From: Pseudomonadota bacterium
GTDB lineage: Bacteria > Pseudomonadota > Gammaproteobacteria > SURF-13
Reading direction: 5' to 3'
Length of the DNA stretch: 37,604 bases
NCBI GenBank assembly: GCA_027624315.1
Contig: JAQBXX010000013.1
Coordinates: 1-37,604 of the forward strand
Positions 893 through 35,767 of this stretch are shown here, piece by piece. The position numbers were made by a program, and so were the translations under genes. Numbering within the stretch: position 1 is the first letter of the stretch; each line of letters opens with the position of its first letter. Below the pieces are notes generated by a model. The model worked only from the letters and a program-made list of their open reading frames with translations. It was not told the origin of the DNA and made no database searches.

Positions 893-957
893 AGTGGCGA
901 GTAGCCAGGAGATAGAGTATTTTTTCTGGCTACTCGCCACTAGCTACTAGCCACTAG
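893..957. repeat. Family B heptamer-armed inverted repeat (copy B1)
   Basis: Hairpin between ahcY and metF. The inner arms pair over 15 bases (GTGGCGAGTAGCCAG with its complement). Read on the minus strand, the left arm is a chain of 7-mers (agtggct, agtagct, agtggcg, agtagcc) and the right arm is the complementary chain. The ahcY stop codon TAG lies inside the outer end of the element, and metF starts a few bases beyond the other end. Confidence 0.85.
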
Positions 958-2267
958 TACCTATAGTGTTCCGGCTTGTACGGGCCGTTGACGGAGATGC
1001 TCAGATACTCCGCCTGCTTCGGGGTAAGCTCGGTGAGTTTGACGCCGAGCTTTTTCAGATGCAGGCGCGCGACCTTTTCATCCAGTGTCTTTGGCAGCAC
1101 GTAGACCTTGCGCTCGTATTTATTGTAATTCTGCCATAACTCGATCTGCGCCATCACCTGATTGGTGAAGGAGCTGGACATCACGAAGCTGGGATGCCCG
1201 GTACCGCAGCCGAGATTTACCAGGCGGCCTTCGGCGAGCACGATGAGGCGCTTGCCGTCGGGGAAGATCACGTGATCGACCTGCGGCTTGATGTTTTCCC
1301 ACGGATATTGGCGCAGCGACGCAATGTCGATCTCGGAATCGAAGTGGCCGATGTTGCATACGATGGCCTGATTCTTCATGCGCCGCATGTGTTCGTGCGT
1401 AATCACGTTGACGTTGCCGGTGGCGGTGACGAAGATGTCACCCTGATCGGCCACGTCGTCCATGCGCATCACGCGATAGCCTTCCATCGCGGCCTGCAAC
1501 GCGCAGATCGGGTCGATCTCGGTGATCCACACCGTGGCGCCCAGCCCGCGCAGGGATTGCGCGCAGCCCTTGCCCACGTCGCCGTAGCCCAGCACCACGC
1601 AGATTTTCCCGGCGATCATCACGTCGGTGGCGCGCTTGATGCCGTCCACCAAGGATTCGCGGCAACCGTATAAATTGTCGAACTTGGATTTGGTGACCGA
1701 GTCGTTGATGTTGATGGCCGGGACTTTGAGCGTGCCGGCCTTCATCATTTCGTACAAACGATGCACGCCGGTGGTGGTTTCCTCGGACAGGCCGTGCACG
1801 TCCTTCAGCAGATCGGGATATTTTTCGTGCATCATCTGGGTGAGGTCGCCGCCGTCGTCCAGAATCATATTGGGACGCCAGCCGTTGGATCCGAAGATGG
1901 TTTGATCGATGCACCACCAGAATTCTTCTTCACTCTCGCCCTTCCAGGCGAAGGTGGGGATGCCTGCCGCCGCCATTGCGGCTGCGGCATGGTCTTGCGT
2001 GGAAAAGATATTGCACGACGACCAACGAATCTCGGCGCCAAGCGCAATCAATGTCTCCATCAGCACTGCGGTCTGGACGGTCATGTGCAAACAACCCGCA
2101 ATGCGCGCGCCCTTGAGCGGTTTTTGCGCGCCATACTCCTCGCGCAGCGCCATCAGGCCGGGCATTTCGGTCTCGGCGATGGCGATTTCCTTGCGTCCCC
2201 AGGCGGCGAGATTGATGTCGGCGACCTTGTGGTCGGGGGTGAGATTTTTAATCAATGGACTGCTCAT
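954..2267 (-). CDS. ahcY: Adenosylhomocysteinase (S-adenosylhomocysteine hydrolase)
   Basis: NAD-dependent cytosolic enzyme that hydrolyses S-adenosylhomocysteine to adenosine and homocysteine, removing the inhibitory product of SAM-dependent methylation. The 437-residue sequence contains the substrate-site block [20 protein letters not shown], the Rossmann motif GYGDVGKG, the [11 protein letters not shown] segment and the canonical C-terminus YKPEHYRY. It lacks the roughly 25-40 residue insertion seen in many proteobacterial homologues (Pseudomonas, about 469 aa) and so resembles the shorter form. An AAGGA ribosome-binding site precedes the ATG. It sits between metK and metF, separated from each by an inverted repeat (A1 and B1). 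Its TAG stop is the first codon of repeat B1, so no residues have been added to the conserved C-terminus. Confidence 0.97.
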
Positions 2268-2294
2268 AGGGTTTTCCTTAAAAAAATTAAAGCT

Positions 2295-2379
2295 TCAACG
2301 CAAAGACGCAAAGTCGCCAAGAAATGAATGTTTGAACAATGTCTTTGCGATCTTGGCGTCTCTGCGTCTTTGCGTTGAG
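2295..2379. repeat. Family A octamer-armed inverted repeat (copy A1)
   Basis: Hairpin between metK and ahcY. The left arm is caacgcaaagacgcaaag followed by tcgccaag, a chain of 8-mers on acgcaaag. The right arm is the complementary series (tcttggcg, tctctgcg, tctttgcg, ttgag). The loop of about 30 bases is AT-rich and not conserved between copies. There are seven copies in the window. Confidence 0.88.
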
Positions 2380-2393
2380 TGGTCTAGGCTGGG

Positions 2394-5460: not shown

Positions 5461-5529
5461 AAGTAGCGAGTGGCTAGTAGCTGGTAGCGAGGAGGGTTTG
5501 CTTTTTCCAGCCACTCGCCACTTGCCACG
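5461..5529. repeat. Family B heptamer-armed inverted repeat (copy B2)
   Basis: Hairpin just after the prk stop codon. The left arm is agtagcg, agtggct, agtagct, ggtagcg, agg; the right arm is agccact, cgccact, tgccacg. It is the only B copy that lies wholly between two genes and does not touch the downstream start codon. Confidence 0.85.
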
Positions 5530-7573: not shown

Positions 7574-7668
7574 CAAAGACGCAACACAAAGTCGCAAAGA
7601 CGCAACGAAATGAAAAGCCATTGTAATTTTATCTTTGCGTACTTTGCGTCTCCGCGTCTTGGCGTTGA
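7574..7668. repeat. Family A octamer-armed inverted repeat (copy A2)
   Basis: Hairpin between tkt and gap. The left arm carries caaagacgcaac, caaagtcg, caaagacgcaac; the right arm carries atctttgcg, actttgcg, tctccgcg, tcttggcgttga. It begins about 8 bp after the tkt stop. Confidence 0.85.
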
Positions 7669-8728: not shown

Positions 8729-8820
8729 CCAACGCCAAGACGCGAAGACGCAAAGGAATCATATGCAAAAGCCCATAGCCCATCCTGGCGTTCTTTGCGA
8801 CTTTGCGCCTTTGCGTTGAG
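8729..8820. repeat. Family A octamer-armed inverted repeat (copy A3)
   Basis: Hairpin between gap and pgk. Left arm: ccaacgccaag, acgcgaag, acgcaaag. Right arm: tggcgttc, tttgcgac, tttgcgcc, tttgcgttgag, then a T-run (tttttt). The arm plus T-run on the plus strand resembles an intrinsic terminator lying inside the operon. Confidence 0.87.
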
Positions 8821-8842: not shown

Positions 8843-10039
8843 ATGTCAATCATCAAGCTGGAAGAATGCAGAAATCTCACCGGTATCCACGTACTGATTC
8901 GCGCCGACCTCAACGTGCCGATGAAAAACGGCAAGATCACGGATGAAACACGCATCTATGCCACCGTCCCGACCATCGAGTTTTTGATGGCTACGGGCGC
9001 CAAGGTGATGGTGATGTCGCACCTGGGGCGGCCTGAGGAAGGCGTGTACGACGAGAAATATTCTCTGGCGCCGATTGCGGAAAAACTGTCCCAGCATCTG
9101 GGCACCAAGGTGCGCCTGGTCAAGGATTGGCTGAATGGCATGGAGGTGGCGAACGGCGAAGTGGTGCTGTTTGAAAACGTGCGCTTCAACAAGGGTGAAG
9201 AGGATAACGACGACGCGCTGGCCAAAAAGATGGCGGCGTTGTGCGAAGTGTTTGTGATGGATGCCTTTGGCACGGCGCATCGTGCGCAGGCCTCGACGCA
9301 CGGCGTGGCAAAATACGCGCCGGTGGCGTGTGCCGGTCCCCTGCTGTGGAAAGAGCTGAAAGCTCTGAACCTGGCGCTCAAGGATCCGAAGCGCCCCATG
9401 GTCGCCATCGTCGGTGGCTCCAAGGTTTCCACCAAACTCACCGTACTCGAATCGCTGGCCGGTATCGTGGATCAGTTGATTGTGGGTGGCGGTATCGCCA
9501 ACACGTTCATCGCAGCAGCAGGCTACAACGTCGGCAAGTCGTTGTACGAGCCTGACCTGATTCCTACAGCCAAGCGGCTCGCCGAAAGTGCCAAGGCGCG
9601 CGGTGCGGAGATTCCGGTACCGGTGGACGTGGTGTGCGGCAAGGAGTTTTCCGAAACGGCGAAGGCCACGCTGAAAAACGTCGATCAGGTGCAAGACGAT
9701 GACATGATCTTCGATATCGGGCCGAAGACTTCGGCGCGCTTGGCCGAGATACTGGGCAAGGCAGGCACTATCGTGTGGAACGGCCCGGTAGGCGTTTTCG
9801 AGTTCGACCAGTTCGGCGCTGGCACCGAGGCGCTTGCCAAGGCCATCGCTAAGAGCGCAGCCTTCTCGCTTGCAGGCGGCGGCGATACGCTGGCGGCCGT
9901 TTCCAAATACGGCGTCGAGAACCACATCACCTACATTTCCACCGGCGGCGGCGCGTTCCTCGAGTTCCTGGAGGGCAAGACCTTGCCCGCAGTCGCCATT
10001 CTGGAACAGCGTGGTAAACAGGCAGCGACCAGTGACTAG
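8843..10039 (+). CDS. pgk: Phosphoglycerate kinase
   Basis: Transfers phosphate between 1,3-bisphosphoglycerate and ADP, and is the ATP-consuming step after RuBisCO when run in reverse. The 398-residue protein has the family hallmarks [30 protein letters not shown], the [14 protein letters not shown] stretch, [13 protein letters not shown] and the C-terminal [14 protein letters not shown]. The start at 8843 ([12 protein letters not shown]) is chosen over a longer frame because the extra N-terminus is encoded by repeat A3 and an ACAGGGA site lies 10 nt upstream. The C-terminal extension after the conserved EQRGK (residues QAATSD) and the TAG stop fall in the left end of repeat B3. Confidence 0.96.
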
Positions 10040-10134
10040 CCAAAAACCATTCAGCACCCAACTGTGTGCAGGTTTGTTTTTGCCACTTGCCACTTGCCAC
10101 TTGTTACTTGCCACTGTAGTTATGCCACTGTAGT
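10024..10134. repeat. Family B heptamer-armed inverted repeat (copy B3)
   Basis: The element overlaps the 3' end of pgk and runs to the base before the pyk start. The short left arm (agtgact, agcc) includes the pgk TAG. The right arm is a run of 7-mers: tgccact three times, tgttact, tgccact. Two copies of a tgccactgtagt unit then end at the pyk ATG. The two arms are less symmetric than in other copies. Confidence 0.75.
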
Positions 10135-10135
10135 C

Positions 10136-11581: not shown

Positions 11582-11594
11582 TGAGTCTATAAAA

Positions 11595-11729: not shown

Positions 11730-11747
11730 TTGCTAAAAGGGTACTAT
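11720..11747 (+). promoter_or_regulatory. Candidate sigma70 promoter for fba
   Basis: TTGCAT (11720-11725), a 16-nt spacer and TACTAT (11742-11747) lie 55 bp upstream of the fba start. Both hexamers match the consensus at 4/6. The -35 hexamer is the last unit of the right arm of repeat A4. The predicted transcript would have a leader of roughly 45 nt. Confidence 0.4.
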
Positions 11748-16045: not shown

Positions 16046-16204
16046 AAAGGCAGATACAAGATACAAGTTGCAAGATACAAGTAAAAGCGGGGCCGTCTTG
16101 TGCGGCCCCGTATTTGTTCAAAGGGAGTTACAAGAGTAAAGATGCCATGAGGTAAGGCAGGACAATAGTTTGTAACTTGTATCTTTACTCTTTTATCTTT
16201 TCTC
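16046..16204. repeat. Family F heptamer-armed inverted repeat
   Basis: The outer left arm is a run of 7-mers (gatacaa, gatacaa, gttgcaa, gatacaa, gtaaaag). The right arm is the complementary kind (cttgtat, ctttact, cttttat, ctttt) and ends 10 bp before the next start codon. An inner pair (gttacaa/ttgtaac and gagtaaagat/atctttactc) also forms. The rubrerythrin terminator is enclosed between the arms. Confidence 0.75.
16088..16118 (+). terminator. Rho-independent terminator after rubrerythrin
   Basis: CGGGGCCG and CGGCCCCG form a perfect 8-bp GC stem with a 7-nt loop, followed by the T-rich tatttgtt. Confidence 0.8.
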
Positions 16205-16213
16205 TGAGGTTAT

Positions 16214-19144: not shown

Positions 19145-19160
19145 TGGTACTTGCTGACTT

Positions 19161-25518: not shown

Positions 25519-26646
25519 ATGGATTTCAGTGATCTGCTGAAGATGGTGGTGCAGAAGAATGCCTCGGATTTATTCGTCACCGCAGGCATTCCTCCCAGCA
25601 TCAAGGTGAATGGCGCAGTCGCCCCAGTGTCGCAGGCCGCGCTCAGCGCGGAGCAGACACGCGCCCTGGCCCTGAGCCTGATGGACGCAAGGCAGCGTGA
25701 GGAGTTCGAGCGCACGCGGGAGTGCAACTTCGCCATCAACCCAGAGGGCATCGGGCGTTTCCGCGTGAACGTGTTTGTGCAGCAGCAGCGCGTGGGCATG
25801 GTGCTGCGCAAGATCGAAACCGTGATTCCGAATTTCGAGCAGCTGCGCCTGCCGCCGATACTCAGGGACATCGCCATGACCAAGCGCGGGCTGGTGCTCT
25901 TTGTCGGCGCGACCGGCTCCGGCAAGTCCACTTCACTGGCCGCGATGGTGGGTTATCGCAATGAAAACAGCACCGGCCACATCATCACCATCGAAGACCC
26001 GATTGAGTTCGTGCACCAGCACAAGGGTTGCATCGTCACGCAACGCGAGGTGGGCGTGGATACCGAGAGCTTTGACGCGGCATTGAAAAACACCCTGCGC
26101 CAGGCGCCGGACGTGATACTGGTGGGCGAGATACGCGCGCGCGAAACCATGGACTATGCCATCGCCTTCGCCGAGACCGGCCACCTGTGCTTGTCCACCC
26201 TGCACGCGAACAACGCCAATCAGGCGATGGATCGCATCATCAACTTCTTTCCGGAAGAGCGCCGCGCGCAGTTGCTGATGGATTTGTCGCTCAACCTCAA
26301 GGCCGTGGTCGCGCAGCGTTTGATTCCCACCGCGAACGGCAAGGGCCGCTGTGCCGCTGTCGAAATATTGTTGAATACGCCGCTCGCCTCCGATTTCATC
26401 CTCAAGGGCGAGGTGCACGAGCTGAAGGCGCTGATGGCGCGCTCCAACGAGCTGGGCATGAAGACCTTCGATCAGGCGTTATACGATCTTTTTGCCGCAG
26501 GCGAGATCAGCTACGACGATGCGATCCGCAATGCCGACTCCGCCAACGAACTGCGCCTGATGATCAAGCTGAATGAGCAGGATGGTGTGCAGAAACTCGG
26601 CGCGGCGACGGCAGGATTGTCGCTGGTGGATGCGGACAAGCACTGA
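25519..26646 (+). CDS. pilU: Type IV pilus retraction ATPase PilU (PilT-like)
   Basis: PilT paralogue that helps PilT in retraction under load. The 375-residue sequence has the N-terminal DLLKMVVQKNASDLFVTAGIPPSIKVNG, Walker A GATGSGKSTS, ITIEDPIEFVHQHKGCIVTQREVG, Walker B VILVGEIRARETM and the AETGHLCLSTLHANNANQAMDRI signature typical of PilU. It is intact, 25 bp downstream of pilT. In known systems PilU depends on PilT, so the broken pilT upstream matters. GGGAG precedes the start by about 7 nt. Confidence 0.96.
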   Translation: MDFSDLLKMVVQKNASDLFVTAGIPPSIKVNGAVAPVSQAALSAEQTRALALSLMDARQREEFERTRECNFAINPEGIGRFRVNVFVQQQRVGMVLRKIETVIPNFEQLRLPPILRDIAMTKRGLVLFVGATGSGKSTSLAAMVGYRNENSTGHIITIEDPIEFVHQHKGCIVTQREVGVDTESFDAALKNTLRQAPDVILVGEIRARETMDYAIAFAETGHLCLSTLHANNANQAMDRIINFFPEERRAQLLMDLSLNLKAVVAQRLIPTANGKGRCAAVEILLNTPLASDFILKGEVHELKALMARSNELGMKTFDQALYDLFAAGEISYDDAIRNADSANELRLMIKLNEQDGVQKLGAATAGLSLVDADKH

Positions 26647-26663
26647 CAAGTAACAAGAGCAAT

Positions 26664-26741
26664 CTAACGCAAAGACGCCAAGACGCAAAGATTTTTATAG
26701 TTTAAATTTTTTACACTTTGCGACTTGGCGTCTTTGCGTTG
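26664..26741. repeat. Family A octamer-armed inverted repeat (copy A6)
   Basis: Left arm: taacgcaaag, acgccaag, acgcaaag. Right arm: actttgcg, acttggcg, tctttgcgtt. The arms match nearly base for base and the loop is AT-only. It lies between convergent pilU and pyrK and is well placed to terminate both. Confidence 0.88.
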
Positions 26742-26777
26742 GGATGCTAAGGAATCTCTGATTTGTTCAGGGCTTGC

Positions 26778-27653
26778 TCAGGTAAATCCCGTAATCACCG
26801 CAGCGTCAAACACCGGCCCGTCCACGCACACGCGTTTCATCGCCGGGCCCTGCGCGGTGGTTACCTCGACCACGCAACCCGCGCAACCGCCCACCGCGCA
26901 GGCCATGAACTCCTCCAGCGATACCTGACACGGCAGGCCATACTCGTGCGCGAGTTGCGCGCAGGCCTTGAGCATGGGGTGCGGGCCGCAGGCGAAGATC
27001 TCCACTTCATCGCGCTGCTGAGCGCTCAAGCTATCGAGCCAATGGCGCGCGAGTCCGGTGACGTAGCCATCAAAGCAGCCGGGATAGCCTTGCAGGCTGG
27101 CGAGACGGCTCGCGATGCCCCAGTCCTCCATCAGCGGCATGGCGGCGATGATGCCCTGCGGCATGCCCGGCACGATAATTTTTGACGGGCGTGCGGTGAA
27201 GGGGAAGGGAATCTCCGAACCCATAATCACCAACGGCTGATATTTTTTTTGAGACCGCAGGACTTCGGCGAGAAATATCATGGGCGGAATGCCCACCCCG
27301 CCGCCGAGCAGCAGCGCGCGTGGCCTGTTCTCGTGCGCCGTGAACGGCACGCCGATGGGCCCCATCACACTCAATGTTTCACCGGCCTTGCGCTGGGCCA
27401 GCAGGCGTGTGCCAAGGCCGGTGATCTTGTAGAGCAGCTCCACCCAGCCCGCCTTCGCATCGGCACGCATGAGCGAGAGCGGGCGGCGCATGGGCAGCAG
27501 CGGGTCGCAGGTCAGATGCACGAAACTTCCCGGCGTTGCGCGTGCGGCAATTTCAGGCGCGCGCACGCGCAAGATGTATTGAGCACCTGCGCAGGCCTGA
27601 TGTGACAGCACCTCTGCGTCCTCGACGAAGATCGTGTCGCGGTATTTCATCAT
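26778..27653 (-). CDS. pyrK: Dihydroorotate dehydrogenase electron-transfer subunit-like protein
   Basis: A 291-residue flavodoxin-reductase-like protein with an FAD-binding barrel (MRRPLSLMRAD, the RxxS motif), the NAD-binding LLLGGGVGIPPMIF and a C-terminal [2Fe-2S] cluster site, Cys-x4-Cys-x2-Cys-x15-Cys (CAVGGCAGC...C). This is the pattern of PyrK, which passes electrons from class 1B dihydroorotate dehydrogenase to NAD. No pyrD is adjacent. It follows pyrB and the pseudo-dihydroorotase in the pyr run. The start is two tandem ATGs at 27653 and 27650, directly against repeat B4, with no ribosome-binding site; the frame is open back through the repeat. Confidence 0.82.
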   Translation of the reverse strand: MMKYRDTIFVEDAEVLSHQACAGAQYILRVRAPEIAARATPGSFVHLTCDPLLPMRRPLSLMRADAKAGWVELLYKITGLGTRLLAQRKAGETLSVMGPIGVPFTAHENRPRALLLGGGVGIPPMIFLAEVLRSQKKYQPLVIMGSEIPFPFTARPSKIIVPGMPQGIIAAMPLMEDWGIASRLASLQGYPGCFDGYVTGLARHWLDSLSAQQRDEVEIFACGPHPMLKACAQLAHEYGLPCQVSLEEFMACAVGGCAGCVVEVTTAQGPAMKRVCVDGPVFDAAVITGFT

Positions 27654-27718
27654 AGTAGCGAGTAGCGAGTAGCGAGTGGCGAGGGCCAAGGAACGAAAGG
27701 CTTTTACCTCGCTACTTG
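27654..27718. repeat. Family B heptamer-armed inverted repeat (copy B4)
   Basis: On the minus strand the short left arm (agtagcg, agg) contains the TAG stop of the pyrC-like gene, and the right arm is cgccact followed by cgctact three times, ending exactly at the pyrK ATG. Arm lengths are unequal. Confidence 0.82.
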
Positions 27719-28992
27719 ATGAGTTCATACACCACTTCCCCATCTAATAGCGTATGCGTCACCTTACCCTTGAGTTCCCAGTTGAGGAACGGCGTATTGT
27801 GGCCGCGACTGACGAGCGTGTCTGTGCTGAGTGTCCAGTAGCGCTCGGGATCGAAGATGCAGATGTCCGCCGTCTTGCCGACGGCCAGCGTGCCTGCGTC
27901 AAGGCCGAGGATGTGCGCGGGTTTACAGGTGACGTGTGCGAGTGCGTCAGAAAGCGTCAGCACCTTTTCGTCGGTGAGGCGCAGCGTGAGCGGCAGCAGG
28001 GTTTCGAGCGCGGAGATGCCGGGTTCGGTTTGGGTAAACGGCACGAGCTTGGCATCGGATTCGTGCGGCTGATGGTCGGAGCAGATCGCGGCTAGCGTGC
28101 CGTCGCCGAGGCCCTGGCGCAGGCCGTCGCGGTCGCGCAGCGTGCGCAGCGGCGGCAGCACGTGGCACTGGCTGTTGAAATGGCCGATATCCATCTCGGT
28201 GAGATATAAATGGTGCGCGCTGGCATCCGCCGTCACGTTGATCCCGTCATGCTGTGCGCGTGCGATCATGCGTACCGCGCGTGCGCTGGAGAGGCGGCAG
28301 AAATGCGCGCGTACTCCGGTCTGTTCGATGAGCACAAGGTCGCGCGCGAGTGCCACGGTTTCGGCGGACTCCGGAATGCCGGGCAGGCCGAGGCGCGTGG
28401 CGACGGCACCTTCATGGGCGCAGCCGCGGTTGGCGAGTGCGCTGTCTTCGGCGTGCAGAAATACGGTGATGCCATGCGTGGCGGCGTACTCCATGGCGCG
28501 GCGCATCACCAGCGTGCTGGCGATGGGGCGCCGCGCGTTGGTCAGGCCCGCACATCCGGCCTGCTGTAATGCCGCCATTTCACTCAGTTCGTTACCGGCC
28601 AGTGCCTTGGTGAGCGCACCGAGCGGGACGACGTGCGCCAGCCCCGTTTGTTGCGCGCGGCTGCGTATCAACTCCACCACCGCCGGTGTGTCGGTGACCG
28701 GATCGGTGTCCGGCGGGCAGCATAGCGTGGTGATGCCCGCCGCCGCCGCCGCGCGCGTCTCGCTCGCAATGGTGGCCTTGTGTGCGGCGCCGGGTTCGCG
28801 CAGATGTGCGGAGAGGTCCACCAGTCCCGGGCACACGATGCGGTTGCGCGCGTCGATGCTGCGATCCGCGCTGAAGCCCTCCGGCTTTTTGCCGAGCGCC
28901 ACGATGCACCCGTCGGCGATATACACGTCCTGCACCTTGTCGATGCCGTGCGCGGGGTCGATGACGCGGCCGTTTTTAATGACGATGTGCAT
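27712..28992 (-). CDS. pyrX: Dihydroorotase-like protein, probably inactive (PyrC'/PyrX type)
   Basis: A 426-residue amidohydrolase of the type I dihydroorotase family, in which several zinc and catalytic ligands are altered. The HxHxR motif reads DLSAHLR (first His replaced by Ser). The residue corresponding to the bridging Asp of the FTDDG stretch is lost (LTNARRP). The HVST-type His is Arg (FCRLSSA). HAED and SDHQPH are retained. Pseudomonas encodes such a pseudo-dihydroorotase after pyrB, where it holds the aspartate transcarbamoylase dodecamer together without catalysing; the same order and overlap here suggest the same role. The start ATG overlaps the pyrB stop by one base (TGATG). Its TAG stop lies in repeat B4. 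An active PyrC must be encoded elsewhere. Confidence 0.9.
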   Translation of the reverse strand: MHIVIKNGRVIDPAHGIDKVQDVYIADGCIVALGKKPEGFSADRSIDARNRIVCPGLVDLSAHLREPGAAHKATIASETRAAAAAGITTLCCPPDTDPVTDTPAVVELIRSRAQQTGLAHVVPLGALTKALAGNELSEMAALQQAGCAGLTNARRPIASTLVMRRAMEYAATHGITVFLHAEDSALANRGCAHEGAVATRLGLPGIPESAETVALARDLVLIEQTGVRAHFCRLSSARAVRMIARAQHDGINVTADASAHHLYLTEMDIGHFNSQCHVLPPLRTLRDRDGLRQGLGDGTLAAICSDHQPHESDAKLVPFTQTEPGISALETLLPLTLRLTDEKVLTLSDALAHVTCKPAHILGLDAGTLAVGKTADICIFDPERYWTLSTDTLVSRGHNTPFLNWELKGKVTHTLLDGEVVYELIK

Positions 28993-29954
28993 CACTCTTC
29001 CTTTCCACTGCGCATGGCGAGTGTCATGATCGCCATGCGCAGCGCGATGCCGTGGGTGACCTGTTGCAGAATCACCGAGTGGCCACCGTCGGCGACGCGC
29101 GAGTCGATCTCGACGCCGCGGTTGATCGGCCCCGGATGCATGACGATGACATCGGGCTTGGCATAAGCCAGTTTTTCTTCGGTCAGGCCGTAGAGATGAA
29201 AATATTCGCGCTCGCTCGGCAGCATCGCGCCCAGCATGCGCTCGTGCTGCAGGCGCAGCGTCATGATGACATCCACGTCGCGCAACCCCGCGCGCAGGTC
29301 ATGATAAACGTGCACGCCGAGACTTTCGATCTGCGCCGGGAGCAGGGTCTTCGGCGCGATCACGCGCACCTCGGCCACGCCCAGCGTAGTGAGTGCGTGG
29401 ATCTGCGCGCGTGCCACGCGCGAGTGCATGATGTCGCCCACAATCGCCACGCACAACCTGCCGAAATCCGGTTTGTGCCGGCGCAGGGTGAACATGTCGA
29501 GCATGGCCTGCGTGGGATGCGCATGGCGCCCGTCGCCCGCGTTGATGACGCTCACGTGCGGCGCCACGTGGCTGGCGATGAAATGCGCCGCGCCGCTTTC
29601 GGAGTGACGCACGATGAACATGTCACAGTGCATCGCCTCCAGATTGCGCAACGTGTCGAGCAGCGTTTCACCCTTGGTGGCGGAGGAGGTCGACACGTTG
29701 ATGTTGAGCACGTCGGCGGACAGGCGTTTGGCGGCGAGCTCGAACGTGGTGCGCGTGCGCGTGCTCGGCTCGAAAAACAGATTGACGATGGTCTTGCCGC
29801 GCAGCAGAGGCACTTTTTTCACCGTCTGCTCGCCCACTGTGGCGAACGACTCGGCAGTGTCCAGGATTTCCGTGAGCAGCGCGCGATTGAGCCCCTCTAT
29901 CGTGAGGAAGTGGCGCAGGCGTCCGCTGCTGTCGATTTGTATATTGTTGCTCAT
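28992..29954 (-). CDS. pyrB: Aspartate carbamoyltransferase catalytic subunit
   Basis: Condenses carbamoyl phosphate with aspartate in pyrimidine synthesis. The 320-residue protein has the carbamoyl-phosphate motif [13 protein letters not shown], the HPTQAMLD stretch, [12 protein letters not shown] and the C-terminal [10 protein letters not shown]. The short N-terminal extension ([11 protein letters not shown]) fits the Pseudomonas-type class A enzyme that assembles with the pseudo-dihydroorotase. No pyrI (regulatory subunit) is present. It overlaps pyrR by 4 nt and the dihydroorotase-like gene by 1 nt, so the three are translationally coupled. Confidence 0.97.
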
Positions 29955-30457
29955 GTCTTGCGTTGCACCGTAAGGCGCAGATCATCCGGTCCGCTCAATT
30001 TTACATACTCGTTGTGCGCCAGCGCTAGGTGACAGCCCGCTACGCGCGCCTCTATCGGCAACTCCCGCCCGGGACGCTCGACCAGTACGGCGAGGGTTAC
30101 GCTCGCCGGACGGCCGTAGTCGAAGATTTCGTTGAGTGCGGCGCGGATCGTGCGCCCGGTATGGAGCACGTCATCCACCAGTATGATGTGCCGCTCATCC
30201 ACGTTGAACGGCAGATGCGAAGGTTTGATCTGCGGATGCATGCCGATACGCGTGAAGTCATCGCGGTAGAACGAGATATCCAGCGTGCCCAGCGGCTGAT
30301 TCATGTTCAGCAATGGATGCAGGCGTTTTGCTACCCACGCGCCGCCGCTGTGTATGCCGATCATCGCCGCGTCGGTCTTGTCTTCTTTAGTGAGTATGAC
30401 TTGCAGGGCTTGCGCCATGTCCGCGAGGAGTGTGTTCGTGTCAGGCAGGGCGTTCAT
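29951..30457 (-). CDS. pyrR: PyrR, uracil phosphoribosyltransferase-like pyr regulator
   Basis: A 168-residue PRTase-fold protein with the PRPP loop [32 protein letters not shown] and the DISFYRDDF hood segment typical of PyrR. In Bacillus it is an RNA-binding attenuation protein. In proteobacterial operons the gene precedes pyrB, and its regulatory role is less clear. I see no attenuator in front of it because it is joined to ruvX and pyrB by 4-nt overlaps. Confidence 0.95.
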
Positions 30458-30876
30458 GGATGCGGGCCAGGGTGGTTTAGCCAGGTTTGCAGAATGATCT
30501 GCGCTGCGAATTTATCGACATCGCCGCGCGCCTTTCGCGTAGGCGCATTTTCCATCAGCGCTGCGGCGGCGTGCGACGATAGCCGCTCATCGATGGTATG
30601 CACGGGAAGATGGTAGCGCCCGTGCAACTGGTGGCCAAAGCGGCGTGCCGCACGCGTGATGGAATTTTCGCTGCCGTCCCGGTTCAGCGGCACACCGACC
30701 ACGAAGGCCTGCGGTTGCCACTCGGAGACCAAACGCGTGATGGCGCTCCAGTCCGGCCGGTTGTGGCGCAGGGCCAGTGTTTCCAGCGCAGTGGCGGTGT
30801 GGGTGATCTGCTGTCCGACGGCAACGCCGATATGCTGGGTGCCGTAATCAAAGCCGAGTAGAGTGCGCGCCGTCAT
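30454..30876 (-). CDS. ruvX: Holliday-junction resolvase-like protein RuvX (YqgF)
   Basis: A 140-residue RNase H-fold nuclease (YqgF/RuvX), involved in 16S rRNA 5'-end maturation and proposed to act on Holliday junctions. LLGFDYGTQHIGVAVG carries the first catalytic Asp, DERLSS the conserved Glu, and DVDKFAAQIILQ the last acidic residue. The ATG at 30876 (MTARTLLGFDYG) is chosen because it overlaps the yqgE stop by 4 nt and fits family length; an in-frame start at 30942 would add 22 unrelated residues. The order yqgE-ruvX-pyrR-pyrB is conserved in gammaproteobacteria. Confidence 0.95.
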   Translation of the reverse strand: MTARTLLGFDYGTQHIGVAVGQQITHTATALETLALRHNRPDWSAITRLVSEWQPQAFVVGVPLNRDGSENSITRAARRFGHQLHGRYHLPVHTIDERLSSHAAAALMENAPTRKARGDVDKFAAQIILQTWLNHPGPHP

Positions 30877-31466
30877 GCGTGACCCACCTCGCCGGAGAGA
30901 CGGCTGATATCCACTCCCAGCAACGCCGCCGCCGCTGCCCACCGATCCTCGGCGGGTGTTTGAAACAGGATGCGCGTATCCGCCTTGCCGCTCAGCCAGG
31001 CGTTGTCGGCGATTTCCTGTTCGAGCTGGCCCGCGTCCCAGCCGGCATAGCCGAGCGCTATCAGGGTATCGCCGGGGAGTTCATCGGCGGCGAGCGCCTT
31101 GAGAATGTCGGGCGAGGTGGTTACGCCGACGCGGTCGGTGACGACCAGCGTGGATTCCCAGCGCTGCAGCGGCTCATGGATGACGAACAGCGCATCGCGC
31201 CGCACCGGTCCGCCGAGATATACGGGGCGCTGGCCGAGTTCCTGGCTGCTGGGTTTGATCTCGATGTGCTGCAACACCTCGCCCAGCGTGATCACCAGCG
31301 GCTGGTTGACGACGATGCCCATCGCGCCTTCCGCGCTGTGTTCGCAGAGGTAGACGACACTGTGAAAAAAGTTGGGATCCGCCAGCGTGGGCATGGCGAT
31401 GAGGAAGTGATTTTTCAGACTGCCGGGTTCCATGTCTCGAATGGGCGCCCTCGAATTGTTCGGCAT
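30873..31466 (-). CDS. yqgE: YqgE/AlgH family protein
   Basis: A 197-residue UPF0301 protein: LKNHFLIAMPTLADPNFFHSVVYLCEH at the start, GAMGIVVNQPL, VYLGGPVRRDALFVIH and the ALGYAGWDAGQLEQEIADNAWL signature. The molecular function is unknown (linked to alginate control in Pseudomonas). Starts at 31466 (MPNNS) and 31433 (MEPGS) are both possible; neither has a strong ribosome-binding site. It overlaps ruvX by 4 nt and follows tonB across a REP-like hairpin (C2). Confidence 0.94.
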   Translation of the reverse strand: MPNNSRAPIRDMEPGSLKNHFLIAMPTLADPNFFHSVVYLCEHSAEGAMGIVVNQPLVITLGEVLQHIEIKPSSQELGQRPVYLGGPVRRDALFVIHEPLQRWESTLVVTDRVGVTTSPDILKALAADELPGDTLIALGYAGWDAGQLEQEIADNAWLSGKADTRILFQTPAEDRWAAAAALLGVDISRLSGEVGHA

Positions 31467-31507
31467 TGTAGCATGCGCGCCTGCGGAGCGACACCGGCTA
31501 GAGTCAT

Positions 31508-31547
31508 GTAGGTTGGGTTAGGCGCGTTTTTTGCGCCGTAACCCAAC
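31508..31547. repeat. REP-like hairpin, family C (copy C2)
   Basis: GTAGGTTGGGTTAGGCGC, a T-rich loop and gcgccgtaacccaac. It is nearly identical to the first hairpin at 23550-23590 and likewise has GTAG at the foot. It lies between tonB and yqgE. Confidence 0.85.
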
Positions 31548-31553
31548 ATAAAG

Positions 31554-32429
31554 CTAGTTCGTGCTCGACAAGCGGTTTTCGCGCAGGAATTGCCATGTGC
31601 ACGTGATGTGCAGCACGTCGGCGTCCTTGCGGATGTTGTCCGGAAACGGGGCGTAGGGGGCGGCGAGCTTCACGATGGCGATGGCGGCGTCATCCAGCAC
31701 CTTGTGTCCGGACGAGCGGCGCAGGGCGATGCTGTGCACCTTGCCGTCGGGGTTGAGCGCGACATCGAGAATCAGGCTGCCGGAGAGATTGTTGCGCCTG
31801 GCCGCGTCGGGATAATTCAGATTGCCGATCTGCTCCACCTTTCTGCGCCAGGCTTCCATATAGCTGGCGTATTTGTACTCGCGCGTGGCGGCAGAGATGA
31901 AGGCCTGGCGCGGGCGTTTTGCATAGGCCTGGCGCGACTCATTGATCTCGGCGGAGAGGCTGGCAATCTGCAGGCTGCGTGCGATGAGATCGGCGGCGGA
32001 AGGCGCATCGGCAGGTGCTTCCTGCTGCTCCTTCTGATCGGCCTCGGTCTTGTGTGGTGACGGGGCCTGTGCCGTGAGTTTGTTTTTTATCTTTGGGCGG
32101 TCGGGCTCGGGCTGTAGCGTCGTCGTGGTTTCCTGCTGTGCGAATTCGGCGGCGGGCGGCGGCGTTACGGGGTGGCTGCGCTCGTCCGTATTGCCGCCGC
32201 CGCGCTGATGGGCCTGCGCGAGAAAATCGGCCTGGTCCGGCGCCTTGTCTGCGCGTGTCGTGACCAGCGTAATCTCCATCGCCGGGAAAGGATTCTCGAT
32301 CGGCAGCGTGATGATGTCAAAGCGCACGCCGAGAATGAAAATGGCATGCAGCACCACGGCGAAAAACAGCGTGAGACCGAGCCGGTCATTCGCGCCGATG
32401 GGCGTGGGCAAGGGCATTACGGCGGACAT
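31554..32429 (-). CDS. tonB: Energy transducer TonB
   Basis: Couples the inner-membrane proton motive force (ExbB/ExbD) to outer-membrane TonB-dependent receptors. The 291-residue protein has one N-terminal helix (about residues 17-37, LGLTLFFAVVLHAIFILGV), a Gln/Glu/Pro/Lys-rich periplasmic linker and a C-terminal TonB domain (NLNYPDAARRNNLSGSLILDVALNPDGKVHSIALRRSSG; about 198-291). It follows the position of tonB between gshB and yqgE in Pseudomonas. The ATG at 32429 is the first base outside hairpin G3 and has no ribosome-binding site; the ATG at 32417 is an alternative. No exbBD or receptor is in the window. Confidence 0.93.
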   Translation of the reverse strand: MSAVMPLPTPIGANDRLGLTLFFAVVLHAIFILGVRFDIITLPIENPFPAMEITLVTTRADKAPDQADFLAQAHQRGGGNTDERSHPVTPPPAAEFAQQETTTTLQPEPDRPKIKNKLTAQAPSPHKTEADQKEQQEAPADAPSAADLIARSLQIASLSAEINESRQAYAKRPRQAFISAATREYKYASYMEAWRRKVEQIGNLNYPDAARRNNLSGSLILDVALNPDGKVHSIALRRSSGHKVLDDAAIAIVKLAAPYAPFPDNIRKDADVLHITCTWQFLRENRLSSTN

Positions 32430-32555
32430 AATCAGGAGACACCAAGTAAGGAGTTACCGCTGACGGGGTGTCTCCTGATTAAAAACCCTGTTAACTCTGC
32501 CCCCACCCTGTCCCGCCCCCTAAATAAGGGGCGGGGACGTGGCGGAAAGTGTAGC
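32430..32555. repeat. Composite G+E repeat (copy 3)
   Basis: Hairpin G: AATCAGGAGACACC with GGTGTCTCCTGATT, 14-bp perfect arms. It is followed by family E: accctgttaactctgccc, ccaccctgtcccgccccct, aaataa, ggggcggggac, gtggcggaaagtgtagcc. The order is identical to the copy before parE. It lies between the Gx gene and tonB. Confidence 0.85.
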
Positions 32556-32579
32556 CTTAATAGTGAGCTCATGAGCAAT

Positions 32580-33101
32580 CTACGCGCCTGCTTTGGTCAA
32601 CATAGCCTGCGCAATTATACCGCTCACCGCGCCGAAGATCACGGCGGCGCTCATCAATACCGGTAGCAGGTGCAGCAGCGCCGGGTGCGGAATAAACAGC
32701 GCGTAGGCCACGGCGAACTGGCCCGCCATGTGCGCCAGCGCCGCGAGCACGCTGTAGCCCAGTGCGCTAAGACCAGCGCCGGGCAAGCGTTGTGCAACGA
32801 TGTACGTCAGTGCCAGCACCAACGCGCTGCATAACGCGCCGGACAGGCTCAGCACAAACGTGGGCGAGAGAAAGCTGCCGAGCAACAGGCTGCTCACCAG
32901 CACGCGCAACAGCGTCACCCACGCCGCCATGCGCCAGCCGTAGCGTATAAGCACCGCAATCGTGACCACGTTGGCGAGCCCCGGCTTGATGCCGGGTAGG
33001 GGAGAAGGCAACGCGCTCTCGGCAATGTGTATGGTGACAGCGAGCGCCGTGAGCCAGGCGATCAGATGGTCGTCACGCGTGGTGGTGAGTTTACGTGGCA
33101 T
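32580..33101 (-). CDS. Gx transporter family / heptaprenyl-diphosphate-synthase component I-like membrane protein (EetB-like)
   Basis: A 173-residue inner-membrane protein with about five hydrophobic helices. The SALPSPLPGIKPGLANVVTIAVL motif is typical of the Gx transporter/HepS component I family. In Firmicutes, members called EetB are encoded next to a NusG-domain-II protein (EetA-like) and an ApbE-type flavin transferase in loci for flavin-based extracellular electron transfer. The same three families are adjacent here. The start at 33101 (MPRKLTTTR) is preferred: an earlier TTG at 33134 lies inside repeat A7. Substrate is unknown. Confidence 0.82.
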   Translation of the reverse strand: MPRKLTTTRDDHLIAWLTALAVTIHIAESALPSPLPGIKPGLANVVTIAVLIRYGWRMAAWVTLLRVLVSSLLLGSFLSPTFVLSLSGALCSALVLALTYIVAQRLPGAGLSALGYSVLAALAHMAGQFAVAYALFIPHPALLHLLPVLMSAAVIFGAVSGIIAQAMLTKAGA

Positions 33102-33130
33102 ATTGAGCAGCAGTATGGCCAAGAAAAGAT

Positions 33131-33220
33131 TCAACGCAAAGGCGCAAAGACGCAGAGAGTTTGGAGTAATGCATAGTGAATTATTGCGTGTTCTTTGCGC
33201 CTTGGCGTCTTTGCATTGAG
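33131..33220. repeat. Family A octamer-armed inverted repeat (copy A7)
   Basis: Left arm: tcaacgcaaag, gcgcaaag, acgcagag. Right arm: tctttgcg, ccttggcg, tctttgcattgag. It lies between the NusG-II gene and the Gx gene and probably supplies part of the latter's leader. Confidence 0.87.
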
Positions 33221-33265
33221 CTGTTTGCTGCCTGACATTCCATAGGCCTGGTGAATTCGGCCCTG

Positions 33266-33637
33266 CTAAAAATTAATGGCATCGAAGCGCGGCTCGCGGC
33301 CGATCACCTGCACGCTGATGCGGTTCGGCAGGCAGGCCGCGACTTCGCCGCCGAGCGTTATCCAGCCCGTGTGCACGCACTGCTTGCCGTGACAGGGCGA
33401 GTCGGCGAAGCGAATCCTGCCAGCGTGAATTTCGAGCACGCTCACGCCGAGTGCACCGGGGATGTTGAGGTGCTGATCCTGGTGCAGCGAGATCACGCTG
33501 AATTCCTTGCCGCCGACCAGAATGCGCGCCTGCTCGCCGCGCGTCGCGTCACCCCAGAATTTTATATATAGAAATGCCAGCAACGCCAGCGCCGCGACCA
33601 GCACCACTGCATCGGCACGTGTTGCACTGAATTTCAT
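33266..33637 (-). CDS. NusG domain II-containing membrane-anchored protein (EetA-like)
   Basis: A 123-residue protein with an N-terminal helix (DAVVLVAALALLAFLYI, about 9-25) and a short extracytoplasmic domain of the NusG_II type: LEIHAGRIRFADSPCHGKQCVHTGWI and CLPNRISVQVIG. Cys82, Cys87 and Cys100 are conserved in related sequences. Despite the name it has nothing of NusG's transcription function. It overlaps the apbE stop by 4 nt, so it is translated with it, and precedes the Gx gene. In Listeria and Enterococcus this family pairs with Gx in electron-transfer loci; transfer of that role to this organism is inference. Confidence 0.88.
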   Translation of the reverse strand: MKFSATRADAVVLVAALALLAFLYIKFWGDATRGEQARILVGGKEFSVISLHQDQHLNIPGALGVSVLEIHAGRIRFADSPCHGKQCVHTGWITLGGEVAACLPNRISVQVIGREPRFDAINF

Positions 33638-34692
33638 AATGGCGGGCTCAGTTCGATCTTCGGTGCCGGTGTGGTCTCGAAACGGATACGTTTCGCCAGC
33701 ACCGGGTCGATATGCACGGTGCCGTGGTCGTCGATCAACATGGCCTGCTTGATGCCCATTGCGCGCGCGATGCGGTGCCAGTCTTTAGTACCCGCCACGA
33801 CCAGCGCAGTGCTGGCTGCGTCCGCCGTGGCGGTATCGGACGCGAGCACGGTGACTGACAGTGTGCCTTGCGCGGGATAGCCGGTGCGGGGGTCGATGAT
33901 GTGGTGGTAGCGTTTGCCCGCGTAATCGAAGTAGCGCTCGTAGGTGCCGGAGGTGACGATGCTCTCGTCACCTTGCAGCTCGATGGAGGCGAGGATGCCG
34001 CTGCCGCGCGGATCACGGATGCCGATGCGCCACGGACGGTTGCCGTGCCTGCCGATCACGCGGATGTCGCCGCTCGCGTTCACCATCGCATTCTCGACGC
34101 CGAGCTTGCGCAGGTGCGCGATGGCGACATCCACCGCGTAGCCCTGGCCGATGGCGCCAACGTCGAGTTGCACGGCGCGATTGGTGCTGCGCAAATGATC
34201 GCCCTCGATCACCACGTCGTCCAGGGTCGGGTGCTGTGAGATCAGTGCACTGATGACGGCGGGGTCGGGTGGCGGGCCTTTGGGTTCGTCGCCCTGAAAT
34301 CCCCAGCGCGCGAGCAACTGGCCGATGGCGGGGTTGAACAGGTGATCGCTGGCTTGCGACAACGCGTGCGCCCGCACGAGCAACGGAATCATTTCCGGAT
34401 TAACGGAAAAGGCATGGCCCGTGACGAGTTGCGCGTTGATGCGCGTGAGCTCACTGGGTTTCCACGCATGCCAGGTGGTGTGGATGCGATTGAAGTCCGC
34501 GGTGATCGCATCGGCGGCCTGGCGTGCGGCCTCGGGCTTCACGCCCCAGAGACTGATGTCTACTAACGCGCCGAGGGCGAGAATCTGTTCTTGGTAGAGA
34601 GGTGCTTCCTGTTTGCTGCATGACAAAGTAGCAAGTAGCAAGATGAGGCAGTAGCTAGTAGCTAGTGGCGAGTAGCGAGGAAAAGCGTACAT
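33634..34692 (-). CDS. apbE: FAD:protein FMN transferase (ApbE family), exported
   Basis: Covalently attaches FMN to Ser/Thr of exported redox proteins. The 352-residue product contains the ApbE signatures: TTWHAWKPSELTRIN, QLDVGAIGQGYAVD (metal and FAD site), NASGDIRVIG, HHIIDPRTGYPAQG and TADAASTALVV. The first 25 residues are MYAFPRYSPLATSYCLILLLATLSC, a signal peptide with a lipoprotein-like TLSC; most of it is encoded by the right arm of repeat B5. The ATG at 34692 has an AAAGG site 7 nt upstream, which also lies in the repeat. It is followed, with overlap, by the NusG-II gene. No FMN-carrying substrate protein is seen in the window. Confidence 0.9.
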   Translation of the reverse strand: MYAFPRYSPLATSYCLILLLATLSCSKQEAPLYQEQILALGALVDISLWGVKPEAARQAADAITADFNRIHTTWHAWKPSELTRINAQLVTGHAFSVNPEMIPLLVRAHALSQASDHLFNPAIGQLLARWGFQGDEPKGPPPDPAVISALISQHPTLDDVVIEGDHLRSTNRAVQLDVGAIGQGYAVDVAIAHLRKLGVENAMVNASGDIRVIGRHGNRPWRIGIRDPRGSGILASIELQGDESIVTSGTYERYFDYAGKRYHHIIDPRTGYPAQGTLSVTVLASDTATADAASTALVVAGTKDWHRIARAMGIKQAMLIDDHGTVHIDPVLAKRIRFETTPAPKIELSPPL

Positions 34693-34742
34693 AACCGGCC
34701 TTTGTTGTCCCTCGCCACTAGCCACTAGCTACTCACCACTTG
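34626..34742. repeat. Family B heptamer-armed inverted repeat (copy B5), overlaps gshB end and apbE start
   Basis: On the minus strand the left arm is agtggtg, agtagct, agtggct, agtggcg, agg. The loop holds acaacaaaggccggttATG. The right arm is cgctact, cgccact, agctact, agctact, then looser units. The left arm encodes the last residues and TAG of gshB; the loop and right arm encode the ribosome-binding site, start codon and signal peptide of apbE. Confidence 0.87.
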
Positions 34743-35717
34743 TTTCTCAACCACATCGAGAAAGGAATCCGCAATGTTTAATCCATACAACGCATCAAGT
34801 TCCCGTACACACGTCGGACTGGTGACATTGATCTCGGTGAGATAATCGCCGATCACATCGAGCCCCACGAACAGCAGGCCACGCGCGCGCAACTCCGGTC
34901 CCACCTCGGCGCAGATCCAGCGGTCGCGCGCGGACAGCGCTACACCCACGCCGCGCCCGCCCGCCGCGAGGTTGCCGCGAGTCTCGCCCGGCGCGGGGAT
35001 GCGCGCGAGCGCGTAGGGCACGGGTTCGCCGTCAATCATCAGAATGCGTTTGTCGCCCTCGCTGATCTCGGGAATAAAGCGCTGCGCCATGATGAAGCCG
35101 CCGCCGTGGTGGGTCAGTGTTTCAATCACCACGTTGAGGTTGGGGTCGCCGCTGCGCAGCCGGAACACGGAGGCGCCGCCCATGCCGTGCAGCGGTTTGA
35201 GAATGACGTCGCCGTGCTCGGCGAGAAAGGCGCGCAGGGCATAGGCATCGCGCGTCACCAGCGTCGGCGGCGTGCATTGCGGAAACCAGGCAGTGAATAA
35301 TTTTTCGTTGCAGTCGCGCAGCGCCTGCGGTTTGTTCACCACCCGCACGCCGGCCGCTTCGGCGCGTTCCAGCAGCAGGGTGGTGTAGAGATATTCCATG
35401 TCGAAGGGCGGATCCTTGCGCATGAGGATGACATCCAGCGTGTCCAGCGCCGCGGATTCCGCGCCGGTAAATTCAAACCATCGTTCAGCGTCGTCCTGCA
35501 CGCGCAGCGCGCGCATGCGCGCGCAGGCACGCCCATCGCGCAGCCACAGATCGCCCTGCTCCATATAGCTGAGCGACCAGCCGCGCTGCTGCGCCGCCAG
35601 CAGCATGGCGAAGGTGGTGTCCTTTTTGATGTTGATGCGGGCGATGGGGTCCATCACTACGCCGAGTTTGAGACAGTGGCGAGTCGCTAGTGGCGAGTGG
35701 CGAGGAAAGTCGTGCAT
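34725..35717 (-). CDS. gshB: Glutathione synthetase
   Basis: ATP-grasp enzyme adding glycine to gamma-glutamylcysteine. KLGVVMDPIARINIKKDTTFAMLLAAQ matches the E. coli N-terminus, and VILKPLHGMGGASVF, EGDKRILMIDGEPVPYALARIP and LTEINVTSPTCVREL are the ATP-grasp and Mg-binding blocks. The conserved KLGVVMDP strand begins right at the edge of repeat B6, and there is no native start before it. The nearest upstream start is the ATG at 35717 in the repeat loop, giving an N-terminal leader MHDFPRHSPLATRHC and 330 residues. The ATG at 35654 (MDPIARIN) would remove the first strand. Last residues VVSS and the TAG come from repeat B5. It follows gshA. Confidence 0.93.
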   Translation of the reverse strand: MHDFPRHSPLATRHCLKLGVVMDPIARINIKKDTTFAMLLAAQQRGWSLSYMEQGDLWLRDGRACARMRALRVQDDAERWFEFTGAESAALDTLDVILMRKDPPFDMEYLYTTLLLERAEAAGVRVVNKPQALRDCNEKLFTAWFPQCTPPTLVTRDAYALRAFLAEHGDVILKPLHGMGGASVFRLRSGDPNLNVVIETLTHHGGGFIMAQRFIPEISEGDKRILMIDGEPVPYALARIPAPGETRGNLAAGGRGVGVALSARDRWICAEVGPELRARGLLFVGLDVIGDYLTEINVTSPTCVRELDALYGLNIADSFLDVVEKQVVSS

Positions 35718-35767
35718 GGCCGGCTTCTTGTTGTTCCTAGCTACTAGCCACTAGCGACTCGCCACTG
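35674..35767. repeat. Family B heptamer-armed inverted repeat (copy B6), overlaps gshA end and gshB start
   Basis: On the minus strand the left arm is agtggcg, agtcgct, agtggct, agtagct, agg. The loop is aacaacaagaagccggccATG, and the right arm is cgccact, cgccact, agcgact, cgccact. The loop matches that of B5 (caacaa..ggcc..ATG), showing the two copies share one ancestor. It encodes the AVASR tail and TAG of gshA and the leader of gshB. Confidence 0.88.

What the first reader, a model, noticed from the sequence alone, without database searches (positions are those of the whole stretch)
893..35767. Family B hairpins: 7-nt tandem arms that read the same in all three frames, stop codons in one arm, open in the other
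Six elements (893-957, 5461-5529, 10024-10134, 27654-27718, 34626-34742, 35674-35767) have arms built from the degenerate 7-mer AGT(A/G)GC(G/T) on one side and its complement on the other. Because 7 = 1 mod 3, a 7-mer chain encodes the same heptapeptide, cyclically shifted, in every frame. The arm leading into the downstream gene reads (LATRHSP)n in all frames with no stop. The arm entered from the upstream gene contains units ending GCT followed by AGT, which place a TAG in each frame within about 21 nt. The element therefore ends translation from upstream in any phase and is translatable into the next gene in any phase. It also concentrates the tetranucleotide CTAG, normally rare in proteobacteria. 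Such an architecture would let an element insert at gene boundaries with little damage.
Basis: partly seen in the sequence, partly recalled or inferred. Interest (0 to 1): 0.85.

Follow-up and report, generated by a model that had tools for sequence, protein, structure and literature searches.

The report
Swappable hairpin repeats at gene boundaries
Short hairpin repeats built from 7-letter words sit in the narrow gaps between genes of this bacterium, and in related bacteria the same gaps often hold hairpins built from quite different words, which suggests a little-understood class of small, fast-replaced DNA elements rather than purpose-built translation adapters.

Summary
Five of six elements fold as hairpins with period-7 arms; 10024-10134 does not. 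They belong to a dispersed family: 35 clusters in the stretches read of a 1.43 Mb genome, a lower bound. All 28 clean two-armed clusters put the purine-rich strand first.

"Stop in one arm, open in the other" is not supported as a design. CTAG puts TAG on both strands. Of 67 arms, 22 stop all three frames on entry and 20 are fully open on exit; column-permuted heptamers often do as well.

What is new is the turnover. Where this genome has a period-7 or period-8 array, relatives have one in 37 of 90 cells, against 3 of 148 elsewhere (5 by raw count); 18 of the 37 are a clearly different unit family. Genomes differ widely in dominant family. Elements often abut start and stop codons, and gshB starts inside a hairpin loop.

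Closest known: convergent GGGAATC heptamers of Xanthomonas. I call this a new variant of that unexplained kind, REPIN-like in behaviour, with no RAYT link found. The machinery is unknown.

The parts
893..957 (.). AGTRGCK hairpin between metF (minus) and ahcY (minus); ahcY ORF ends at TAG in the right arm, metF ATG about 8 nt from the left arm
   Evidence: z -8.7. Same junction: G001 degraded AGTRGCK-like, G003 AAAGGGG hairpin, G004 AAGATAC hairpin, G002/G005 another palindrome
5461..5529 (.). AGTRGCK hairpin between prk and tkt; among the genomes compared, present only here
   Evidence: z -4.5; plain spacers in G002, G003, G004, G005 (G001 could not be aligned here)
10024..10134 (.). degenerate element between pgk and pyk: right array of AAGTGGC-type units 10082-10129, weak left side
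   Evidence: not a stable hairpin (z +2.0); G001 has no repeat here, G004 an AAAAGAG-type array
27654..27718 (.). AGTRGCK hairpin between pyrC (minus, ends at TAG in the right arm) and a dihydroorotate-dehydrogenase-electron-transfer-like gene (minus)
   Evidence: (z -2.4); G001 without repeat; in G002 one arm is followed by another palindromic repeat (by eye)
34626..34742 (.). AGTRGCK hairpin between gshB and apbE (both minus); gshB ends at TAG in the right arm
   Evidence: (z -6.3)
34690..34692 (-). ATG in the loop; frame continues through the left arm (MYAFPRYSPLATSYCLILLLATLS-C) into ApbE, probably as its lipoprotein signal peptide
   Evidence: in G003 the corresponding ATG is the only start before the lipobox, in G000 a GTG and two TTG also exist; the loop is inverted in G001 and still gives an ATG in frame
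35674..35767 (.). AGTRGCK hairpin upstream of gshB; the incoming ORF from each side ends at TAG inside it
   Evidence: z -9.5
35715..35717 (-). ATG in the loop: the only ATG/GTG/TTG before the GshB core, giving N-terminal extension MHDFPRHSPLATRHC
   Evidence: ATG at the same distance (-17 aa) in G001, G002 and G003; G004 without element starts at -4
16051..16206 (.). sister family C: AAGATAC/AAGTTGC arms around a GC-rich stem, same convergent layout, end motif TTAAAGGCAG
2295..2378 (.). sister family A, period 8 (ACGCAAAG) hairpin; other copies at about 7587-7650, 8732-8816, 11593-11731, 21995-22069, 26658-26748, 33134-33208

Best explanation
These are copies of a dispersed family of small (mostly 60-120 bp) hairpin repeats. 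Each has two arrays of about four degenerate heptamers in convergent orientation (purine-rich strand first on both strands) around a variable loop, placed in or at the gap between a stop codon and the next start codon. The family is one of several interchangeable unit families (AGTRGCK, AAGTRGC, AAGATAC, AAAGGGG, AAAAGAG, AGTGAGG, GGGGCTA, and the octamer ACGCAAAG). Shown: dispersal, convergent polarity, absence at some orthologous junctions, different unit families at one junction in different relatives, large differences of family abundance between genomes, and capture of a loop ATG as the start of gshB (probably also of apbE). Inferred: that they spread as miniature mobile DNA, in the manner of REPINs but with tandem-heptamer arms; that a resident hairpin or the stop-start gap is the preferred landing site; that arms vary by slippage and point change; and that stops and open frames are by-products filtered by selection. 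The enzyme that moves or makes them is unknown.
For: Dispersal: 35 clusters in the stretches read, reversed-pattern control 0. Polarity: 28 of 28 clean two-armed clusters in G000 and 20 of 20 in G048 (12 further G048 clusters are one-armed); of 87 arrays from many phyla a pyrimidine-rich period-7 array lies within 300 bp downstream in 43 and upstream in 2, a purine-rich one downstream in 6 and upstream in 5. Empty sites: prk-tkt in four relatives, gap-pgk in G003 and G005. Same-junction occupancy 37/90 against 3/148 (odds ratio 34, p 3e-15; raw automatic count 5/148); restricted to G000 spacers of at least 25 bp, 37/90 against 2/59 (p 8e-8). Of the 37, 14 same family, 5 sister (K to A), 18 different; 12 junctions with two or more clearly different families. 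Example, the junction before lpxB: AGTRGCK in G000, AAAGAGG-type in G002 and G004, GGGCAAA-type in G003, an AGAAAAT-type stretch seen by eye in G001, within a few bases of the same stop codon. Pattern totals (AGTRGCK / AAGATAC / ACGCVAAG): G000 70/5/64, G003 39/11/0, G004 2/109/8, G048 79/23/0. Outer-end motif TTAANNRCAG is followed by a period-7 array at 13 of 21 occurrences, across at least three unit families (some are orthologous copies; about six junctions), against 0-2 hits for each of eight altered motifs (at best 2 of 13). TAA lies exactly 7 or 6 nt outside 24 of 63 G000 ends, background 0.4 per position.
Against: No target-site duplication: mean longest direct repeat between flanks 3.55 against 3.46 when shuffled, p 0.24, 69 elements. 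No transposase is linked: 0 of 14 RAYT neighbourhoods hold AGTRGCK arrays (two hold another period-7 array) and G002 has no detected RAYT. Loops look mostly different between copies by eye, so most copies are not evident duplicates of one element, although G048 has near-identical ones. The end motif is not paired: 13 of 69 elements have TAA/TTA at both ends, about 12 expected by chance. Slot memory could also mean selection for a hairpin at that place. In 53 of 90 cells the relative has no detected array. Rehm 2015 reports that loci near Xanthomonas repeats are more stable than controls (abstract).
Confidence: 0.58

Rival explanations
1. Selected RNA or DNA hairpins: each junction needs a stem (mRNA processing or stabilisation, insulation, termination), and any hairpin family can fill the need, so slots persist while sequences change.
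For: Slot occupancy is strongly shared while family often is not; five of six elements fold better than nearly all shuffles.
Against: Many slots have no detected array in relatives (53 of 90 cells). The R and K states of the two arms are not matched: 53 arm pairs, 0.439 observed against 0.439 expected aligned from outside, 0.407 against 0.439 from inside, so stems are not kept perfect. The terminator scan is not evidence either way, since it allows loops of 3-8 only.
Confidence: 0.2
2. In-place origin by polymerase slippage in 7-nt steps plus strand switching, without mobility (the slippage idea of Mrazek 2007, as cited in Rehm 2015).
For: Some arrays are long and homogeneous, e.g. 8 AGTGGCT units in one G048 arm; heptamer over-representation is reported in many bacteria (PMC4692102, passages seen).
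Against: Arms are not mirror copies of each other. Tens of loci in one genome share one degenerate unit while relatives use another at the same places, which needs exchange of sequence between loci.
Confidence: 0.13
3. One reading: an element that ends incoming translation in any phase and passes outgoing translation in any phase, letting it insert at gene boundaries harmlessly.
For: Stop density 9.4 against 3.9 per 100 nt between strands; entry stops exceed base shuffles, 22 against a mean of 2.2; 21 incoming ORFs end in the entering arm; gshB and apbE frames run out through the far arm; some sister units share the pattern.
Against: Rule fulfilled by 22/67 and 20/67 arms only; exit openness is below base shuffles (mean 34.8); not better than column-permuted heptamers; other sister families in the same slots have no stops on either strand.
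Confidence: 0.06
4. Ordinary REPINs moved by a resident RAYT.
For: Singlets plus convergent doublets, intergenic, hairpin forming, patchy: 8 of 56 genomes, this one included.
Against: Arms are tandem heptamers, not the palindromic REP unit; 0 of 14 RAYT neighbourhoods carry AGTRGCK arrays; a different palindrome (CCTTGACCGCGA) lies beside a G048 RAYT.
Confidence: 0.03

Closest known systems
Convergent GGGAATC heptamer repeats of Xanthomonas (Rehm et al. 2015, PMC4692102; abstract, section 10 and passages seen)
   Same: Tandem heptamers, mostly intergenic, G-rich strand on the coding side near or over stop codons and on the non-coding side upstream of starts, preference for four units, 70-75 convergent pairs per genome, mostly between the same genes in two species with varying length and sequence.
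   Different: AGTRGCK arms rarely hold GGG (6 of 75; 9 of 75 have four or more GG), so a three-tetrad quadruplex cannot explain the four-unit arm here (35 of 75 arms); unit families differ at one junction between relatives; several families coexist per genome.
Cyanobacterial STRR heptamers (Mazel et al. 1990, recalled and cited in PMC4692102) and Nostoc GGGGA(C/T)T repeats (passage of PMC4692102)
   Same: Tandem heptamers scattered between genes.
   Different: In Nostoc few inverted pairs were reported; unit sequences differ.
TAACTGA direct repeats of marine Beggiatoaceae (MacGregor 2015, PMC4679880; abstract, sections 9 and 13 read)
   Same: Heptamer arrays just upstream of starts that mostly lack Shine-Dalgarno sites; stop-bearing on one strand and open on the other; patchy across phyla.
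   Different: Direct repeats with one indirect set; related heptamers rarely repeated, so the unit is fixed rather than degenerate.
REPINs / RAYT (Bertels and Rainey 2011, PMC3116915; abstract and outline seen)
   Same: Singlets and inverted doublets, hairpin, extragenic, dispersed.
   Different: REP units are palindromic and RAYT-linked; these are tandem heptamers with no RAYT link found.

Membership tests
Convergent intergenic heptamer repeats (Rehm 2015 kind) | tandem heptamer arrays in intergenic space | tested here: met
   the 8 period-7 and 9 period-8 arrays of the window lie on a junction or within 51 nt of one
Convergent intergenic heptamer repeats (Rehm 2015 kind) | pairs always convergent | tested here: met
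   28/28 and 20/20 clean two-armed clusters
Convergent intergenic heptamer repeats (Rehm 2015 kind) | close to stop on coding strand, close to start on non-coding strand | tested here: met
Convergent intergenic heptamer repeats (Rehm 2015 kind) | preference for four units | tested here: met
   of 75 arms, 35 have 4 units, 19 have 5, 10 have 3, 8 have 2, 3 have 6
Convergent intergenic heptamer repeats (Rehm 2015 kind) | G-tracts able to form a three-tetrad quadruplex | tested here: not met
   GGG in 6 of 75 arms
REPIN | two inverted units forming a hairpin, plus singlets | tested here: met
REPIN | linked RAYT gene flanked by the same unit | tested here: not met
   0 of 14 neighbourhoods (14 of the 21 hits in G000, G001, G003, G004, G005 and G048 were taken)
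REPIN | GTAG/CGTC-tagged palindromic unit | tested here: inconclusive
   arms read as tandem heptamers; no separate palindrome test was run on single arms
MITE | target-site duplication | tested here: not met
   69 elements, p 0.24
MITE | terminal inverted repeats shared with a transposase-bearing element | tested here: inconclusive
   TTAANNRCAG end motif but not paired; no autonomous partner searched
Intrinsic terminator | GC stem followed by T-run | tested here: inconclusive
   one site, inside a loop, among three elements in 26000-37604; the scan allows loops of 3-8 only, shorter than these loops
Known Rfam RNA | match at gathering score | tested here: not met
   0 matches in the window

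The most novel reading that the evidence does not exclude
Convergent heptamer and octamer hairpins are one cross-phylum class of miniature mobile DNA with an unrecognised mobilising machinery. It homes to the stop-start gap (or to a resident hairpin there) and swaps repeat units between species, so that the slot is inherited while the element is not. Cyanobacterial STRRs, Xanthomonas GGGAATC repeats and Beggiatoaceae TAACTGA repeats would be its local families.
Probability: 0.33. Interest if true: 0.85.

Novelty: new variant of a known kind. Interest (0 to 1): 0.63.

Why it matters
Heptamer repeats have been known in bacteria for decades; in the papers I saw, slippage and quadruplex formation were offered for the seven-nt step and the four-unit arm, without an established origin. 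Here the four-unit convergent layout appears with units that rarely hold GGG, and the same gene junction holds hairpins made of different units in related genomes. That turns the origin question into something measurable: rate of gain, loss and unit exchange per junction. It also shows a repeat becoming part of a gene (start codon and N-terminal extension of gshB, probably the signal peptide of apbE).

Tried and rejected
Mirror-image arms (birth by hairpin copying): rejected, R/K states of the two arms agree no better than arms of different elements in 53 pairs. Target-site duplication: none. RAYT link: none to AGTRGCK; two of 14 neighbourhoods hold some other period-7 array and three a period-8 one. 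TTAA as a duplicated target: the motif is real but its two ends occur independently. Rfam: no match. Terminators: undecided. Virus-borne: 36 stretches in IMG/VR match; the six I read come from one 40.7-kb contig and hold mostly four-unit AGTGGCG arrays; whether that contig is viral was not tested. Literature: unit strings found no paper for AGTRGCK (0 papers) and two papers for the other units, on a peony gene and on Staphylococcus typing (listing only); absence in print rests only.

G048 is probably ES_Gamma_034: one contig has the same length and the same element. Gene calls are by ORF length and GC3, not by a gene finder. The occupancy test uses junctions of the window and of two 13-kb stretches chosen because they hold elements; the empty junctions are their neighbours; arrays were sought by one threshold, so short or degenerate ones count as absent. 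Array orientation is by purine fraction; 32 arrays near contig ends were set aside there, and a few elements were counted from both arms.

Full report
OBSERVATION. The six stretches were read and measured. In the window lags 7, 14 and 8 stand well above locally shuffled sequence, the other lags from 4 to 15 do not go beyond 2 arrays. Five elements fold better than nearly all their shuffles; 10024-10134 does not. CTAG is scarce (29, about 135 expected) and 13 of the 29 lie in the six elements. In the whole genome the 20-nt pattern has 70 overlapping matches against 0 for its reversed control; the stretches read hold 35 clusters, a lower bound because the list was capped.

ANATOMY. All 28 clean two-armed clusters in G000 and all 20 in G048 run AGTRGCK then GCYACT, never the other way; 6 and 12 further clusters are one-armed and one has a stray unit. 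Because an inverted repeat looks the same from both strands, this is a true rule: a gene entering from either side meets the purine-rich strand first. In the pairs I counted by eye from the capped lists the AAGATAC and ACGCAAAG families follow the same order. Of 75 arms, 35 have four units. The two arms are statistically independent in their variable positions. Weak outer motif: TAA lies 7 or 6 nt outside 24 of 63 G000 ends; TTAANNRCAG is followed by a period-7 array in 13 of 21 cases and in at least three unit families, some of these cases being orthologous copies.

GENE BOUNDARIES. Incoming ORFs end before (33), in (21) or beyond (5) the entering arm, 59 ORFs including spurious ones. Outgoing ORFs: in 16 of 47 listed, an ATG lies 6-10 nt from the element end, and none of these 16 has one of five Shine-Dalgarno-like tetramers upstream; whether this lineage uses such sites elsewhere was not tested. 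MacGregor reports the same lack for TAACTGA repeats (PMC4679880, section 13). For gshB the only start codon before the conserved core in G000 and G001 is the loop ATG, and it is the only ATG in G002 and G003 (each also has one GTG further upstream); the distance is 17 codons in all four, 4 codons in element-free G004; G005, with another unit family, has an ATG at 10 and a TTG at 17. In apbE the loop ATG opens a frame that runs through heptamer code into the lipobox; in G003 it is the only start, in G000 TTG and GTG alternatives exist.

Counted on 67 arms, full three-frame stop on entry holds for 22 and full openness on exit for 20. Base shuffles give means of 2.2 and 34.8: entry stops exceed that control, exit openness is below it. 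Keeping the period but permuting columns gives 15.5 and 40.7, with 23% and 75% of permutations at least as high. Of the sister units tried, some share the stop/open pattern (AAGTAGC, AGTGAGG, AATAGCG, AATAGGG, TAACTGA), one stops both ways (AGGGGCT), and others found at the same junctions have no stops on either strand (AAGATAC, AAAGGGG, AAAAGAG, ACGCAAAG). The stop pattern is therefore a property of particular words, not the purpose of the class.

TURNOVER. Relatives at roughly 65-95% identity were aligned by flanking genes. prk-tkt: only G000. gap-pgk (names): octamer in G000 and G001, GGGGCTA heptamers in G002, AGTGAGG in G004, nothing in G003 and G005. metF-ahcY: four kinds in six genomes. 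Two junctions of L271, one of them before lpxB, hold three and four kinds. Over 63 junctions, relatives are occupied in 37 of 90 cells where G000 is, and in 3 of 148 (5 by the raw automatic count) where it is not; 14 same, 5 sister, 18 different. Family totals differ by an order of magnitude between genomes. Other palindromic repeats share the slots: in G002 one follows a single heptamer arm at the 27654 junction, and in G048 several heptamer hairpins sit between halves of a TTGGCCGCGAT palindrome (by eye).

BREADTH. Of 87 usable arrays 43 have a convergent partner, sometimes of another unit, and 2 a divergent one. In 398 genomes of the phylum 12, this one included, have the 20-nt pattern, against 3 for the reversed control: patchy, as in 8 of 56 relatives against 1 for the control.

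MECHANISM. Best reading: miniature dispersed hairpin elements, REPIN-like in behaviour, with an unknown agent; slot reuse is either target preference or selection for a hairpin. Shown: dispersal, polarity, absence at some orthologues, different families at one junction, gene capture. Inferred: mobility, homing, slippage within arms. Against: no target duplication, no linked transposase, mostly different loops.

KNOWN KINDS. The Xanthomonas GGGAATC repeats (PMC4692102) share layout, position and four-unit preference; they were read as quadruplexes, which cannot be the general reason since AGTRGCK arms rarely hold GGG (6 of 75). I file this as a new variant of that kind. I found no printed account of different units at one junction in searches.

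Noticed in passing
window 2295-2378, about 7587-7650, 8732-8816, 11593-11731, 21995-22069, 26658-26748, 33134-33208: A second, period-8 family (ACGCAAAG) with the same convergent hairpin layout; 64 pattern matches in this genome, 30 in G019 of another family, none in G003 or G005.
   Followed up: partly
window 14664-14815, 19021-19170, 32429-32579, 37314-37490: Dispersed repeats of about 150 bp, found at many places in the related genomes; not characterised.
   Followed up: no
G001 locus L152, junction orthologous to 34626-34742: The hairpin loop is inverted relative to G000 and G003, as expected from recombination between the arms, and still offers an in-frame ATG.
   Followed up: partly
L177, L187, L189, L192, L193, L194 (G048): Heptamer hairpins lying between halves of a TTGGCCGCGAT...ATCGCGGCCAA palindrome, several of them 90 bp and near-identical: nested or composite elements.
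   Followed up: no
L282, L286, L293, L310, L312, L314 (one IMG/VR contig of 40,658 bases): A contig classed as viral with at least seven places holding AGTGGCG arrays, mostly of exactly four units; may be a host fragment.
   Followed up: partly
window 10110-10137: A 14-bp tandem duplication (GCCACTGTAGT[T/C]AT) that runs into the pyk start codon.
   Followed up: no
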